From the NCBI GenBank assembly GCA_014381825.1, contig JACNKX010000077.1, positions 62,001-126,000 of the forward strand: a stretch of DNA of 64,000 nt. Reading direction: 5' to 3'. Under the pieces are notes generated by a model. It was not told where the DNA came from, did no database searches, and saw nothing but the letters and a program-made list of their open reading frames with translations. Positions 2,865 through 8,559 of this stretch are shown here, one piece after another. This stretch comes from Planctomycetota bacterium (lineage in GTDB: Bacteria > Planctomycetota > Planctomycetia > Pirellulales > Pirellulaceae). The translations under genes were made by a program, and so were the position numbers. How positions within the stretch are numbered: the stretch's first letter is position 1; every line of letters begins with the position of its first letter.

Positions 2865-3059
2865 GCGGCAACTAGAGCCACATCAAGCTCTTCGTCCTCG
2901 GCTTTGCTCCCGTTTCAAGGCTGGCGATTTACGAAAGTTTCGTCTAGTCGCTTGCACGTCTTTTCGGCAGATCGCATATTGAGTTCGGCACTGGCAATGC
3001 TAGTGGCACACAGACGATCTATTCTCCAATTGTTCAAACTAGTCATACAGGGCTGAACG

Positions 3060-3992
3060 ATGCCACGTTATCACGTATACCGCTCGAATCAAATCAACGC
3101 GACTCCACAGAAAGTCTTCGATACGATTTCCGACTTCCGAACTTGGACGACCTGGTCGCCTTGGCTCGGCGCGGAACCAGATGCGAAGGTCACCGTGACC
3201 GAGAATGCTTCGTCAATCGGTTCGATCTATTCGTGGCAGGGCGAGCTCGTTGGCCAGGGAGAAATCGAACATCGCGACCTGCAACCTGGTCGCTTGATCA
3301 AGGAAGAGATTCGATTCCTCAAGCCGTTCAAGTCAAAATCCGAAGTCGCCTTCGAAATGGAACTGGTGGGCGACGGCACCAAGCTCACTTGGCACATGCG
3401 CGGAGCGTTGCCTTGGTTTTTGTTCTGGATGAAGCCTCAAATGGAAGTGTTCATCGGGATGGACTACGAACGCGGATTGAAGATGCTGAAAGAGTTGCTT
3501 GAGACGGGACAGATTCTTTCGGAGACGAAGATTCGCGGCGTGGAGCCTGTCGGACCGTTGCGCATGGCAGGCGTACGCAAGAAGTATTCGCTAAACGACA
3601 TCGGTCCGTCGATGGCGGCCATGTTGGCGGATGCAACAGAAAAGTTCTCAAAACACAATTTGCCGACTGACGGCGAACCGATGTCGGTCTATCACGACTT
3701 TGACATGAAGTCCGGGATATTCGACTACACGGCAGGGTTCGCACTTCCCGAATCGGTCGGCTCCGTCTCCGAGGAACTTTCGTGTTGGTCACTCTCGGCG
3801 ACGAAGGCCCTTCGCGTCGATCACATCGGCAGCTACGAAAACCTTGGCAACGCTTGGAGCGCGGCGAATCAATTCGCCCGATACAAAAAGCTCAAACAGA
3901 GCAAGGCGGGTGCCTTCGAAATCTACAAGAACAATCCAAATGACACGTCGCCCGCCGACCTGCGCACCGAGATCTCTTTGCCCTTGAGATAG
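3060..3992 (+). CDS. SRPBCC domain fused to GyrI-like effector-binding domain
   Basis: A 310-residue two-domain cytosolic protein. Residues 1-145 form an SRPBCC/polyketide-cyclase-like domain, recognised from NATPQKVFDTISDFRTWTTWSPW and the later TKLTWHMRG strand; such domains bind hydrophobic ligands in a deep cavity. Residues from about 155 to the end resemble the GyrI-like/AraC effector-binding domain, with YHDFDMKSGIFDYTAGFALP and the LRVDHIGSYENLGNAW motif. No DNA-binding domain is present, so it is more likely a ligand-binding or modifying protein than a regulator. It stands alone, 195 bp after the DUF1501 pair. The domain calls are by pattern only; the ligand is unknown. Confidence 0.85.
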   Translation: MPRYHVYRSNQINATPQKVFDTISDFRTWTTWSPWLGAEPDAKVTVTENASSIGSIYSWQGELVGQGEIEHRDLQPGRLIKEEIRFLKPFKSKSEVAFEMELVGDGTKLTWHMRGALPWFLFWMKPQMEVFIGMDYERGLKMLKELLETGQILSETKIRGVEPVGPLRMAGVRKKYSLNDIGPSMAAMLADATEKFSKHNLPTDGEPMSVYHDFDMKSGIFDYTAGFALPESVGSVSEELSCWSLSATKALRVDHIGSYENLGNAWSAANQFARYKKLKQSKAGAFEIYKNNPNDTSPADLRTEISLPLR

Positions 3993-5652: not shown

Positions 5653-5820
5653 GAGATCTCATTGGGACGCGGCAACATCGAGTACCGATCGCCTCGCTAG
5701 AGCAGGTGTTCTGATATCCTGGCTCCGCCCATGGCATGGCACACCCGTGAGCGAAGCAGTCGGATGTATCCAAGGGAACGAGATGTTTGCTTTCAAGGCA
5801 ATTGGGCGGAGCGAGTGCTG

Positions 5821-5918
5821 TTCAAGGCTGCCTTGAATTAGGCTCACTCCGCCCGCTTATATTCAAGGCTACCTTGAATATAAAGGCGGGAAAATCGTAT
5901 ACTCAAGGCTGCCTTGAA
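5821..5918 (+). promoter_or_regulatory. Three-palindrome operator array upstream of fic
   Basis: Three copies of a 17-bp palindrome occur: TTCAAGGCTGCCTTGAA at 5821-5837, TTCAAGGCTACCTTGAA at 5862-5878 (extended to a perfect 25-bp dyad, 5858-5882), and CTCAAGGCTGCCTTGAA at 5902-5918. Each is two CAAGG/CCTTG arms around a 3-bp centre. The centres are at 5829, 5870 and 5910, so the spacing is 41 and 40 bp, close to four helical turns. The middle copy overlaps the proposed -35 and the last overlaps the proposed -10. This is the layout of a repressor operator array. The adjacent Fic protein has its own winged-helix domain and is the obvious candidate ligand, which is inference. Confidence 0.8.
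5874..5903 (+). promoter_or_regulatory. Candidate sigma-70 promoter for fic
   Basis: TTGAAT at 5874-5879 and TATACT at 5898-5903 are separated by 18 bp and lie about 55 bp before the fic start. Both hexamers are embedded in the palindromic operators, so occupancy of either site should block RNA polymerase. Assigned by consensus only. Confidence 0.55.
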
Positions 5919-5956
5919 CTAGAGGGCACTGATTAACCAGCCTCGGGAGCGATGAC

Positions 5957-7147
5957 GTGGCAAAAACACGGCCTACTTCAAACGCAAGTTTCTCTCGCGC
6001 AGGGAGATACGTAAAGCAACCGGCTGATTATCGCGCGTTCATTCCTGAGCCGTTGCCTCCCAATCCTGCTATTCAATTTAACGACGAACTTCAAGTCTTG
6101 CTGTCGCAGGCGGATCGCGCGCTCGGACGACTCGATGGTTCCATTCAGACGTTGCCACATCCCGATCTGTTCGTCTACATGTATGTCCGCAAAGAAGCTG
6201 TCTTGTCCAGCCAAATCGAAGGGACGCAGAGTTCACTACAGGATGTATTGGCCGCTGAAGCAAAGATTCTTACACCGGATCGACCACAGGACGTCGACGA
6301 AGTCGTCAACTATGTACGAGCGATGAACCACGGACTCGACCGTTTGACAAGCCTCCCGATCTCCGTTCGCCTGATCCGAGAGATCCACGCTGAATTACTT
6401 CAGGGCGTCCGCGGTTCGTATCTCACGCCCGGTGAAATTCGCACCAGTCAAAACTGGATCGGTCCTACTGGTTGCACCTTGAACGAAGCTACATTTGTTC
6501 CACCACCACCGCACGAAGTGGCAAACCAGTTGACTGAACTGGAACGCTTCTTACACTCCGATACGCAACTGCCGTTACTGGTCAAAATCGGCCTTGCCCA
6601 CGTTCAGTTCGAAACGATCCATCCGTTTCTCGACGGGAACGGACGTGTTGGTCGTCTGCTAATTACGTTCCTGCTTTGTGAACAGCAGGTACTGCTCAAG
6701 CCTGTCTTGTACCTGTCGTACTACTTCAAACGGAACCGTCAGCAGTACTACGAACAACTACAATCGGTACGTGAGGCGGGGGCATGGGAGGATTGGTTGG
6801 TCTTCTTCTTGCAAGGTGTCGTTGAGGTCAGCCAACAGGCAACCGAAACGGCGCGGCGAATTCTCGATCTCCGCGAAGCACATCGACATGCTATCACTGA
6901 GAACCTTGGGCGCACGGCAGCCAATGGTTATCGAGTCTTGGAGCATCTGTACCAGCACCCGATCGTTTCTGTCAATGAAGTGCAAGAATTGATCGGTACG
7001 ACCTACCAGGCCGCCAATGAGTTGGTATCACGGTTTGTCGAGAGCGGCATTCTTAACGAGATCACGGGCCAAACCCGCAACCGCAGGTTCAAATACGAGA
7101 GCTACATTCGACTATTCCACGACGTCGCTACAGAAGCGAATGCTTAA
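5957..7147 (+). CDS. Fic/DOC family AMPylase with C-terminal winged helix
   Basis: A 396-residue Fic protein, expected to transfer AMP (or another nucleotide moiety) from a nucleotide to a target hydroxyl. The Fic_N domain (about residues 20-110) contains the inhibitory motif Ser84-x-x-x-Glu88-Gly89, matching [ST]xxxE[GN]. The catalytic motif HPFLDGNGRVGR starts at His222 and is complete. Residues about 310-380 form a winged helix-turn-helix (NEVQELIGTTYQAANELV), as in many self-contained Fic proteins. The start is GTG with GGGAG 7 bp upstream. The gene is monocistronic, preceded by three palindromes that overlap its promoter, which suggests autoregulation. No separate antitoxin gene is visible. 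The target protein is unknown. Confidence 0.93.
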   Translation: MAKTRPTSNASFSRAGRYVKQPADYRAFIPEPLPPNPAIQFNDELQVLLSQADRALGRLDGSIQTLPHPDLFVYMYVRKEAVLSSQIEGTQSSLQDVLAAEAKILTPDRPQDVDEVVNYVRAMNHGLDRLTSLPISVRLIREIHAELLQGVRGSYLTPGEIRTSQNWIGPTGCTLNEATFVPPPPHEVANQLTELERFLHSDTQLPLLVKIGLAHVQFETIHPFLDGNGRVGRLLITFLLCEQQVLLKPVLYLSYYFKRNRQQYYEQLQSVREAGAWEDWLVFFLQGVVEVSQQATETARRILDLREAHRHAITENLGRTAANGYRVLEHLYQHPIVSVNEVQELIGTTYQAANELVSRFVESGILNEITGQTRNRRFKYESYIRLFHDVATEANA

Positions 7148-7327
7148 CGATCATATTCGATCACAATATCGTACTTTTCAGTTCTGGGCGACCAACGTCA
7201 CTTCGTTCGAACGAGAGTCGCCTTCGCCTGCGTGTAAGCAAACAAGCCCTTCTTCTCACAAAGCCAACTCGAATGCCTCTTCCGTCGACATACCCACACC
7301 CGACGTGTATCCGTTCTGCTATCGGTC

Positions 7328-7366
7328 GACTTACAACGCCGACTTACAACGCCGACTTACAACGCC
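7328..7366. repeat. Three tandem 13-bp repeats over the ADH stop codon
   Basis: GACTTACAACGCC is repeated exactly three times (7328-7340, 7341-7353, 7354-7366), followed by a partial fourth copy, GACTT. The minus-strand stop codon of the alcohol dehydrogenase (7357-7359) lies in the repeat nearest the gene. Each unit carries the same in-register TTA at its own position, so gain or loss of a unit leaves the protein nearly unchanged. Replication slippage is the likely origin. Confidence 0.85.
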
Positions 7367-8559
7367 GACTTCAAGATGCCGCGCAACTCTTCCAGGCTGG
7401 CTTCTCGCGGGTTCACCCACAGCAGTCTCTTGATTTCGAATGCCTTTTCGGCAAAGCCTAAGAGTTGCTCTTGCGTACCACCGATGTCTCGAATGCGTTC
7501 GGGGATGCTGATGTCGCGTTTCAGTTGCTCGACGGATGCGATGGCGCGCTCGGCCATCGCGTCGACGTCGGACGCGGCTTCAGCGCCCCACAATTCTGCG
7601 ATCTTCGCGAACTTTGCTGTTCGCTCGGGCAAGTTGAATCGCATGACAAACGGCAGCAGCAATCCGTTGCCAGCACCATGCGAGCAATGCAACGCGCCGC
7701 CCATCGGATACTCCAACGCGTGAACCAACCCGACACCGCAATTCGAGAAGGCGATGCCAGCCAGTGTTGACGCGAGCGCCATGTTATTGCGTGCTTCATG
7801 ATTGTCTGGTTCGTTAACAGCGCGAACGAGATTCTCGCCGACGAGACGAATCGCCTTCTCTGCGATGACGTCTCCTAGTGGAAAGCTGCCTTCGTACGCA
7901 CACGCTTCGCCTGGCGGGGTGACTAGCTGGCGATAGTCCGTCGCGGTATATCCTTCGATGGCGTGCGTCAGCGCATCGATCCCGCTGTCGGCGGCAACTT
8001 GCTTGGGGCAACTGTACGTTAGCTCGGGATCGACGACCGCGAGTGTGGGGCGAAGCCAATTGCTGAGCGTGCTGACTTTAATCTTGTTCTCCGTATCGGT
8101 CAGCACCGCTGCGTGTGATACTTCGCTGCCCGTTCCTGCTGTCGTTGGCACACAGATCAAAGGCATGACCGGCCCGGGAATTCGATCAAAGCCAAAGTAA
8201 TCCCGTGGAGTACCACCGTGGCCGAGTACGGTCGCTGTAATCTTGGACAGATCCATGTTGCTTCCGCCACCTAAGCCAAGGATTGCGTCTGGCTTGTATG
8301 CGCGCGCCTGTTCGATTGCGGCGAGTGCAACATGAATCGACGGTTCCGCTTCGCCGCCGTCGAACACTTCAACCGTCATCCCTGCGGCGTGTAACGGTTC
8401 GATCACCCGCTGCGCGACTCCCAGGTCAACCAACGTCTTATCGGTAACGACGTAGACACGACGCAGCCGATGCCTCACCACAAGATCGCCAAGTTGCCGT
8501 ACGGCACCAGGCCCGAACGTCAACTGCCCAGCTGTGTAGAAATTCCAGGTCGCGCGCAT
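7357..8559 (-). CDS. Iron-containing alcohol dehydrogenase
   Basis: A 400-residue group III (Fe-dependent) alcohol dehydrogenase-like enzyme that would oxidise an alcohol or reduce an aldehyde with NAD(P). The N-terminal nucleotide-binding half has the GLGGGSNMDLSK motif; the metal-binding half has DALTHAIEGYTA and GLVHALEYPMGG followed by LHCSHGAGNGLLLP, the expected His-rich iron site. Length and architecture are standard. It follows a small gene with only 2 bp between them, so they are co-transcribed. The substrate cannot be told from sequence; 1,3-propanediol, butanol and lactaldehyde-type enzymes all share these motifs. Its stop codon sits in a 13-bp tandem repeat. Confidence 0.93.
   Translation of the reverse strand: MRATWNFYTAGQLTFGPGAVRQLGDLVVRHRLRRVYVVTDKTLVDLGVAQRVIEPLHAAGMTVEVFDGGEAEPSIHVALAAIEQARAYKPDAILGLGGGSNMDLSKITATVLGHGGTPRDYFGFDRIPGPVMPLICVPTTAGTGSEVSHAAVLTDTENKIKVSTLSNWLRPTLAVVDPELTYSCPKQVAADSGIDALTHAIEGYTATDYRQLVTPPGEACAYEGSFPLGDVIAEKAIRLVGENLVRAVNEPDNHEARNNMALASTLAGIAFSNCGVGLVHALEYPMGGALHCSHGAGNGLLLPFVMRFNLPERTAKFAKIAELWGAEAASDVDAMAERAIASVEQLKRDISIPERIRDIGGTQEQLLGFAEKAFEIKRLLWVNPREASLEELRGILKSAL

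What the first reader, a model, noticed from the sequence alone, without database searches (positions are those of the whole stretch)
5804..5956. Three near-identical palindromes at 40-41 bp spacing over the fic promoter
Seen directly: three 17-bp palindromes with the same CAAGG-CTR-CCTTG core, centred at 5829, 5870 and 5910, plus an outer GGGCGGAG/CTCCGCCC dyad with the same centre as the first. The middle copy overlaps a good -35 and the third overlaps a good -10. Known: Fic proteins with C-terminal winged helices occur, but their DNA targets are rarely defined. Inferred: the Fic protein, or a regulator it modifies, represses its own promoter through cooperative binding on one face of the helix. 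This would couple AMPylation and transcription in a single gene without an antitoxin.
Basis: partly seen in the sequence, partly recalled or inferred. Interest (0 to 1): 0.62.

Follow-up and report, generated by a model that had tools for sequence, protein, structure and literature searches.

The report
Triple operator array controlling fic gene
Three evenly spaced DNA palindromes over the promoter of a bacterial Fic enzyme gene look like the docking sites through which the Fic protein's own DNA-binding tail switches its gene off, an arrangement that travels with this gene across many bacterial phyla.

Summary
Three palindromes centred at 5829, 5870 and 5910 (spacing 41 and 40) lie over the only forward promoter-like site in 5660-6000: its -35 is in the right arm of palindrome 2, its -10 in the left arm of palindrome 3. 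The same triple array, consensus CCATATTAAAGGC-N-GCCTTTAATATGG at 40-41 bp, precedes 44 of 46 non-redundant fic genes of at least 65% identity (window included); loci with it bear about 17 phylum labels, and 2 of 219 controls score. A sister clade has three sites at 31 bp built from a related half-site. Operator bases vary with recognition-helix residues of the Fic winged helix: Gln351 with G5 here; residues 350 and 354 in the sister clade. No neighbouring gene is generally shared. Best explanation: autorepression by Fic itself, with promoter hexamers inside the operator arms. Autoregulation by Fic helix-turn-helix domains was suggested in 2009 and shown for CccR of Yersinia, with a different two-box operator. 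New here: the triple layout, its breadth and a draft recognition code. DNA binding and coupling to AMPylation remain untested.

The parts
5821..5837 (.). Palindrome 1 (operator site 1), TTCAAGGCTGCCTTGAA, centre 5829
   Evidence: in register with site 1 of the family consensus
5857..5883 (.). Palindrome 2 (operator site 2, best match to the family consensus), TTATATTCAAGGCTACCTTGAATATAA, centre 5870
   Evidence: profile scores of the three sites 16, 26 and 18
5897..5923 (.). Palindrome 3 (operator site 3), perfect core 5903-5917, centre 5910
5874..5903 (+). Promoter-like TTGAAT-18-TATACT; -35 in right arm of site 2, -10 in left arm of site 3
   Evidence: in 52 loci with the array predicted -10 elements cluster in left arms of sites 2 and 3
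5804..5811 (.). Left arm of outer dyad GGGCGGAG, same centre as palindrome 1; perhaps special to this copy
   Evidence: not seen by eye upstream of L017, L019, L116, L117
5847..5854 (.). Right arm of outer dyad CTCCGCCC
5957..7147 (+). fic gene (GTG start), 396 aa: Fic_N + Fic domain + C-terminal winged helix; proposed autorepressor
6206..6223 (+). N-terminal inhibitory motif SSQIEG (residues 84-89), class II Fic signature
   Evidence: sequence; S85, I87, E88, G89 invariant and S84, Q86 nearly so in 28 sequences
6620..6646 (+). Fic catalytic motif HPFLDGNGR (residues 222-230)
   Evidence: sequence; all but L225 invariant in 28 sequences, L225 nearly so
7004..7042 (+). Recognition helix of the winged helix (residues 350-362, includes Gln351 and Asn354)
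   Evidence: AlphaFold2 model, mean pLDDT 89.1; helices 339-346 and 350-362, strand 377-379

Best explanation
The three palindromes are an operator array for the Fic protein encoded just downstream. Fic dimers dock their C-terminal winged helices on the half-sites CCTTGAAtat (family form CCTTTAATAT) and cover the promoter, so that fic represses itself. The promoter hexamers are part of the operator: the right arm of one site supplies the -35 and the left arm of the next supplies the -10, which would fix the spacing at 40-41 bp. Shown by computation: the array, its conservation with the gene, its overlap with predicted promoters, and the association of operator bases with recognition-helix residues. 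Inferred: that Fic binds, that it represses, that binding is cooperative, and whether one dimer sits on each palindrome or bridges two. The unit looks like a solo gene without antitoxin; inhibition of the enzyme would be intramolecular (class II motif SSQIEG).
For: Unsupervised scan with both spacings free from 25 to 60: among non-redundant named-genome loci the best triple has both spacings 40 or 41 in 30 of 69 upstream regions, 1 of 67 downstream (L153, a real array) and 0 of 68 far upstream. Profile built without the tested locus and its near relatives, spacings 39-42: 50 of 74 loci with at least 55% identity score above 5, and 44 of 46 with at least 65% (window included); 2 of 219 control regions or shuffles score above 0, both real arrays on the 3' side of fic. 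Loci with the array carry about 17 phylum labels. Among ORFs of 60 codons or more within about 1.5 kb, no protein family recurs in more than 9 of 50 loci (HsdM by eye). Sister clade: three sites at 30 or 31 bp in 19 of 38 non-redundant viral-contig loci, 0 of 36 and 0 of 38 in controls, from a half-site in the same register (CTTTACTAG). Recognition: in the window's clade the strongest of all residue-base associations (207 columns x 11 positions) is residue 351 with operator base 5, and recognition-helix columns exceed catalytic-domain columns (Mann-Whitney p 0.0006). Gln351 goes with G5 in 9 of 11 loci against 1 of 41 others (Fisher p 1.4e-7); in 8 path-disjoint pairs on the best tree 6.5 on average agree and 1 opposes. 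Sister clade, 30 loci (20 non-redundant): Lys/Thr350 with A6, Ala/Ser350 with C6, and Arg354 with G at base 2 or 3, without exception. Promoter overlap. Exact full palindrome only here in the genome and absent from the 59 other genomes of a 60-genome set of relatives. Precedent: CccR represses its own promoter through its C-terminal domain (PMC9755527, passages).
Against: No binding or expression data for this protein. A whole-domain Mantel test found no excess correlation of operator with winged helix over catalytic domain in the 40-41 clade (partial r -0.01 and 0.03, not significant). Catalytic columns also appear among the top residue-base associations in both clades; in the sister clade several equal the recognition helix for base 3, so common descent explains part of the signal. 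Only one independent pair remains on strongly supported branches. L120 has Gln351 but T5 in all six arms. L018, 87% identical on residues 48-388 and dropped as redundant, shows no array (47 against a shuffle maximum of 50), though its match starts only at residue 27. Below 65% identity the array fades in this profile: 5 of 13 at 60-65% and 1 of 15 at 55-60% score above 5. The unsupervised scan placed 39 of 69 named-genome loci at other spacings, and I judge two or three of its 30 hits doubtful. The promoter coincidence is partly circular, because the operator word resembles a -10. Many relatives are metagenome-assembled, so phylum labels may include binning errors. Antitoxins under 60 codons or further than the flank would be missed (11 of 50 loci have under 1 kb downstream, 2 under 1 kb upstream).
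Confidence: 0.85

Rival explanations
1. The array is bound by another, host-encoded regulator, for instance one that Fic modifies, and Fic does not touch it.
For: No binding data for Fic; the whole-domain Mantel test is not significant in the 40-41 clade; the short core CAAGGN3CCTTG has 15 further single places in the genome against 5 for the control pattern.
Against: The array accompanies fic under about 17 phylum labels with mostly unrelated neighbours. The exact full palindrome is absent from the 59 other genomes of a 60-genome set of relatives (some of these carry other fic homologues, and variant operators would not match). Operator bases vary with Fic recognition-helix residues. The second fic of the same genome has different half-sites in front of it (by eye). 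CccR binds its own promoter.
Confidence: 0.07
2. The inverted repeats act as RNA hairpins in the leader (attenuation, or hiding of the start codon) and not as DNA sites.
For: All three are perfect or near-perfect hairpins here; in 28 of 50 loci with the array an in-frame start codon lies in the right arm of site 3.
Against: In many relatives one arm is degenerate while the register and the 40-41 spacing are kept. The sites lie partly upstream of and on the predicted promoter, so sites 1 and 2 would not be transcribed from it. No Rfam family reaches its gathering score.
Confidence: 0.04
3. The array is an end or recombination/replication site (iteron-like) of a mobile unit that carries fic, with regulation secondary.
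For: The gene is patchy (36 of 199 family genomes) and found across phyla; L153 has 40-bp arrays on both sides of fic, L183 a second one downstream.
Against: Only 2 of 72 loci with enough downstream sequence show an array on the 3' side with this profile; predicted promoters coincide with the arms; no neighbour family recurs in more than 9 of 50 loci, and the largest looks by eye like HsdM, not a recombinase.
Confidence: 0.03

Closest known systems
CccR of Yersinia pseudotuberculosis (PMC9755527; passages read)
   Same: Class II Fic with C-terminal DNA-binding domain that represses its own promoter by binding inverted repeats near -35 and -10. What I take to be its structure, PDB 7xux (listed only as a Fic domain protein), matches the model (E 8.1e-12).
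   Different: CccR's footprint is two 10-bp boxes with a 26-bp spacer (AGATAATCAT-N26-ATGATAATCT); here three palindromes at 40-41 bp with another sequence. CccR is a type VI effector; that was not tested here. The sequence match to 7xux is distant (phmmer E 1.1e-16 over residues 63-368).
SoFic of Shewanella oneidensis (PDB 3eqx, 3zcn, 9tc4)
   Same: Best structural and sequence match with known structure; NCBIfam NF046030 is the top NCBIfam family; its C-terminal winged helix was noted in 2009 (PMC2686095, passages).
   Different: Scores 167 bits against the family cut-off of 550, so not the SoFic equivalog. DNA binding by SoFic had not been shown as of PMC10628234.
CbFic2 of Coxiella burnetii (PMC10628234; passages read)
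   Same: Class II Fic with C-terminal winged helix that binds DNA; structure 8cil matches (E 8.8e-12).
   Different: Tested with random DNA; no defined operator. DNA binding stimulates its activity and dimerisation, which is untested here.
Fic-HTH fusions as predicted by Kinch et al. 2009 (PMC2686095; passages read, author name recalled)
   Same: That paper already suggested that HTH domains fused to Fic may regulate expression of fic, by analogy with phd autorepression of the doc operon.
   Different: A suggestion from domain order only in the passages read, without operator, layout or recognition data; the term 'promoter' does not occur in the text.
Type II toxin-antitoxin autoregulation (recalled)
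   Same: A toxin-like enzyme whose locus is repressed through palindromes at the promoter.
   Different: No separate antitoxin gene seen; the DNA-binding and inhibitory parts are in one polypeptide.

Membership tests
Class II Fic protein | Fic motif HPFx(D/E)GNGR and N-terminal inhibitory motif (S/T)xxxE(G/N) in the same chain | tested here: met
   HPFLDGNGR residues 222-230 and SSQIEG residues 84-89, invariant or nearly so in 28 sequences; Pfam Fic_N and Fic above cut-off
Class II Fic protein | AMP transfer to a target protein | not testable with these tools
   Target and nucleotide unknown; one of the best structural matches is a Mycobacterium marinum Fic solved with CDP (7cb8)
SoFic equivalog (NCBIfam NF046030) | Score at or above the curated cut-off of 550 bits | tested here: not met
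   167.2 bits
CccR-type autorepressing Fic | C-terminal winged helix | tested here: met
   Model with helices 339-346 and 350-362 and strand 377-379, mean pLDDT 82-95 in the blocks 331-390; no Pfam HTH family was hit
CccR-type autorepressing Fic | Binds and represses its own promoter | not testable with these tools
   Comparative evidence only
CccR-type autorepressing Fic | Operator of two inverted boxes 26 bp apart | tested here: not met
   Three palindromes at 41 and 40 bp
CccR-type autorepressing Fic | Type VI secretion effector | not tested
   -
Fic-containing type II toxin-antitoxin module | Separate antitoxin gene next to fic | tested here: inconclusive
   In the window the next long ORFs look by eye like a sulfatase and an iron-type alcohol dehydrogenase (names recalled, not searched); over 50 loci no partner family recurs in more than 9, but ORFs under 60 codons were not looked at and flanks are short

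The most novel reading that the evidence does not exclude
This large, horizontally mobile Fic family is a one-gene toxin-like and often defence-linked module whose operator array is also an allosteric anchor. Dimers held on the array are kept in one enzymatic state, as DNA binding switches CbFic2 activity, and release from the array (for example by DNA damage or phage takeover) both derepresses the gene and changes the enzyme. In restriction-modification-linked relatives the array sits after fic, before hsdR, hsdS or a Mod-like gene, so that Fic would also time expression of the neighbouring defence gene. The residue-base pairs found here would be a transferable recognition code for the family.
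Probability: 0.15. Interest if true: 0.8.

Novelty: new variant of a known kind. Interest (0 to 1): 0.57.

Why it matters
Fic proteins with a DNA-binding tail are common, but in the listings of the searches made here I saw only one with a defined DNA target. This result gives a predicted operator, its layout and a first residue-to-base code for a clade found across many phyla, with more distant plasmid copies in lab-friendly cyanobacteria. It makes the role of the winged helix, and whether DNA binding and nucleotide transfer are coupled, directly testable.

Tried and rejected
Host-wide regulator: made unlikely by the full palindrome being found only at the fic promoter and not in 59 other genomes of the relatives set. 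The short core has 15 other single places, which I did not follow.

RNA element: Rfam gave only matches below the gathering score, all to microRNA families, as hairpins may.

Mantel tests: not significant in the 40-41 clade once the catalytic domain is accounted for; in the 31-bp clade the wHTH-based values were undefined (nan), probably because L112 has no aligned C-terminus, and I do not use them.

Best-triple scan on the second fic of the genome: 51 against a shuffle maximum of 49 with odd spacings (35, 40). The half-sites TATTTTAATCA / ATTAAAATA at 40-41 bp are my reading by eye, not a test.

Rows dropped or special: of 30 loci listed (L016-L045) I scanned 23; L027, L029 and L041-L045 were left out (partial matches or distant). 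Six triples (L146, L175, L194, L139, L142, L182) were left out of profile training by eye as off-register, tandem or doubtful; the counts include them. L017, L018 and L019 are at least 85% identical to a kept row and so outside the non-redundant counts; L017 and L019 have the array and were added back, L018 shows none. L112 was left out of residue tests. L153 counts as a miss upstream because its match was broken and my anchor fell in the wrong place (arrays at 1613-1759 and 2945-3136). In the 40-41 clade I set G5 and similar states by at least 3 of 6 arms.

Further viral scans returned many contigs already held and were not used in counts. Of 9 plasmid loci fetched as a hold-out (of 166 records with a match), the two most similar (62-63% identity) show sites about 41 bp apart (L328 41/41, score 52 against a shuffle maximum of 48; L329 44/41, 48 against 47); the 7 at 60% or less do not show a 40-41 triple in the scan.

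Searching for a Mycobacterium marinum Fic-CDP paper gave nothing relevant in the listing.

Full report
OBSERVATION. P1 is a perfect 17-mer, P2 a 27-mer with 12-bp arms, P3 a perfect 15-mer. A scan for the best triple of mutually similar palindromes, spacings free between 25 and 60, gives 60 here; of 555 overlapping segments of the window the next best gives 52 (mean 47.4, sd 1.3). In the 9.69-Mb genome exact TTCAAGGN3CCTTGAA occurs only at P1 and P2, and the number of places with up to 2 mismatches (54) is near that of the reversed control pattern (41). The short core CAAGGN3CCTTG has 18 exact places, three here and 15 single ones elsewhere, against 5 for the control. The only forward promoter-like site in 5660-6000 is TTGAAT-18-TATACT at 5874-5903: -35 in the right arm of P2, -10 in the left arm of P3. 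The GTG start of fic is at 5957.

THE PROTEIN. The 396-aa product has Fic_N and Fic domains, the catalytic motif HPFLDGNGR and the inhibitory motif SSQIEG N-terminal to it, i.e. class II. The AlphaFold2 model (28-sequence alignment, mean pLDDT 89.1, pTM 0.87) has a long helix 277-331 and then a C-terminal winged helix with recognition helix 350-362. Best structural matches are SoFic and a Mycobacterium marinum Fic, then 7xux (which I take to be CccR) and CbFic2.

CONSERVATION OF THE ARRAY. I scanned 173 of these 180 loci; 125 remain after removing redundancy at 85%. In the unsupervised scan the best triple has both spacings 40 or 41 in 30 of 69 named-genome loci upstream, against 1 of 67 downstream and 0 of 68 about 600-830 nt upstream. 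Of the 30, six are off-register, tandem or doubtful by eye. The consensus is CCATATTAAAGGC-N-GCCTTTAATATGG, clearest in site 2; the window's P2 is a 27-bp version of it. With a symmetric profile built without the tested locus and its near relatives, and spacings of 39-42, 50 of 74 loci with at least 55% identity score above 5, and 44 of 46 with at least 65% (the window included); of 219 control regions or shuffles 2 score above 0, and both are real arrays on the 3' side of fic. The 50 loci bear about 17 phylum labels (metagenome bins can be mislabelled). Below 65% identity the array fades in this profile (5 of 13 and 1 of 15). L018, a near relative outside the non-redundant set, shows no array.

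A SISTER LAYOUT. A second clade, mostly 40-50% identical to the window's Fic and one side of a fully supported branch, has three sites at 30 or 31 bp in 19 of 38 non-redundant viral-contig loci, 0 of 36 and 0 of 38 in controls. Its half-site CTTTACTAG/CTTGACTAG is in register with CTTTAATAT. The two spacings differ by 9-10 bp, about one helical turn. In each layout predicted promoter hexamers tend to fall in facing arms (promoter weights recalled from the E. coli consensus). In 52 loci of the 40-41 clade the best predicted -10 starts exactly 12 nt before or 28 nt after the centre of site 2 in 24, which are the left arms of sites 2 and 3; in the 31-bp clade 12 of 20 have TTGAC(T/C) at one place in site 1 and a -10 within one nt of the same place in site 2. 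I infer that the spacing is set by the promoter: the operator arms are the promoter hexamers. This is partly circular because the operator word resembles a -10.

WHO BINDS. If the Fic winged helix reads the sites, operator bases should follow recognition-helix residues. In the 40-41 clade (50 loci, 207 variable columns x 11 operator positions) the strongest single association is residue 351 with base 5, and columns 346-360 exceed catalytic columns (p 0.0006), although several catalytic columns follow closely. Gln351 loci have G5 in 9 of 11, others in 1 of 41. The tree needs 8 changes of each trait, and in 8 path-disjoint pairs 6.5 on average agree, 1 opposes and 0.5 tie (median one-sided p 0.035), but only one pair rests on strongly supported branches. 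The window itself has Gln351 and G5 in all six arms; L120 is a clear exception. In the sister clade residue 350 (Lys/Thr against Ala/Ser) predicts base 6 (A against C) in 30 of 30 loci, and Arg354 predicts G at base 2 or 3 in 30 of 30 (20 of the 30 non-redundant), with L080 and L098 showing one change without the other. These states changed only 3 and 2 times on the tree, and some catalytic columns track base 3 equally well, so they are few events. A Mantel test on whole domains showed no excess of winged helix over catalytic domain in the 40-41 clade, which counts against a strong claim from overall divergence.

WHY NOT ANOTHER REGULATOR. Among ORFs of 60 codons or more within about 1.5 kb, no protein family recurs in more than 9 of 50 loci (HsdM of type I restriction systems by eye). 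The exact palindrome is absent from the 59 other genomes of a 60-genome set of relatives. The second fic of the same genome has different half-sites, TATTTTAATCA, spaced 40-41 bp by eye, although the scan gives it only 51 against 49 in shuffles.

MECHANISM. Fic dimers dock on half-sites through the winged helix and shut the promoter; the gene is then a self-contained, self-limiting module. Shown: array, conservation, promoter overlap in prediction, residue-base association. Inferred: binding, repression, cooperativity. Open: one dimer per palindrome, or dimers bridging facing half-sites of neighbouring palindromes, as CccR's boxes 26 bp apart would suggest. Coupling to nucleotide transfer is untested.

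WHAT IS KNOWN. A 2009 paper on the Fido domain wrote that HTH domains fused to Fic may regulate expression of fic, by analogy with phd (PMC2686095, passages), so the general idea is not new. CccR of Yersinia represses its own promoter; footprint AGATAATCAT-N26-ATGATAATCT; DNA-binding helices 70.2 A apart; authors state that regulatory and toxic activities are independent (PMC9755527, passages). CbFic2 binds random DNA and is stimulated by it; that paper says DNA binding by SoFic had not been shown (PMC10628234, passages). A 2026 review names, in the passages and the section on gene expression that I read, only CccR as a Fic that represses its own gene (PMC12894286). Six searches for Fic with operators, palindromes, winged helices or autorepression (listings only, showing 15 of 181 papers) showed me no other case; the library is open-access only. 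So autorepression by a Fic is known; the triple layout, its breadth and the draft recognition code are, as far as these searches go, new.

VERDICT. A real, conserved regulatory array; autorepression by Fic is very likely. New variant of a known kind.

Noticed in passing
L030, L031, L033, L035, L037 (downstream of fic): In fic homologues inside or next to restriction-modification genes an array (spacings 40/30, 41/30 or 30/40; scan scores 50-59, L037 the weakest) lies after fic, before hsdS (L030), hsdR (L033, L035) or a Mod-like gene (L037); in L031 a selA-like gene follows. Fic may time expression of the next gene. Gene names are read by eye.
   Followed up: partly
L153:1613-1759 and 2945-3136: Periodic 40-bp tandem arrays of the operator (3.7 and 4.8 copies) on both sides of a fic homologue; L183 also has a second array downstream.
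   Followed up: partly
G000:C52:21799-22869 (L327): A second fic (38% identical) in the window's own genome with different half-sites (TATTTTAATCA / ATTAAAATA) about 40-41 bp apart by eye.
   Followed up: partly
L335 (Aminobacter aminovorans plasmid pAA04): A fic homologue directly upstream of, and on the same strand as, an annotated Hachiman antiphage gene hamA and a helicase gene.
   Followed up: no
L330 (PCC 7002 pAQ6) and L331 (PCC 6803 pSYSX): Fic homologues on plasmids of two laboratory cyanobacteria with ATTAACGAA/TTCGATAAT-like inverted repeats up to the start codon, by eye; the triple scan finds no 40-41 array there.
   Followed up: partly
50 loci with the array: In 28 of 50 an in-frame start codon lies inside the right arm of operator site 3, so the operator and translation start share bases.
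   Followed up: partly
15 other places in the window's genome (L001-L007, L011-L015 and three more): Single exact copies of the short core CAAGGN3CCTTG, 18 in all against 5 for the reversed control; position relative to genes not checked.
   Followed up: no
window 5719-5731: A further GGCTCCGCCC copy, inverted relative to 5803-5815, upstream of the array.
   Followed up: no
window about 7326-7370: Short tandem repeat (gccgacttacaac, about three copies) just downstream of fic.
   Followed up: no
PDB 7cb8 (matched to the window Fic): One of the two best structural matches is a Mycobacterium marinum Fic solved with CDP, so the transferred nucleotide in this branch may not be AMP.
   Followed up: no
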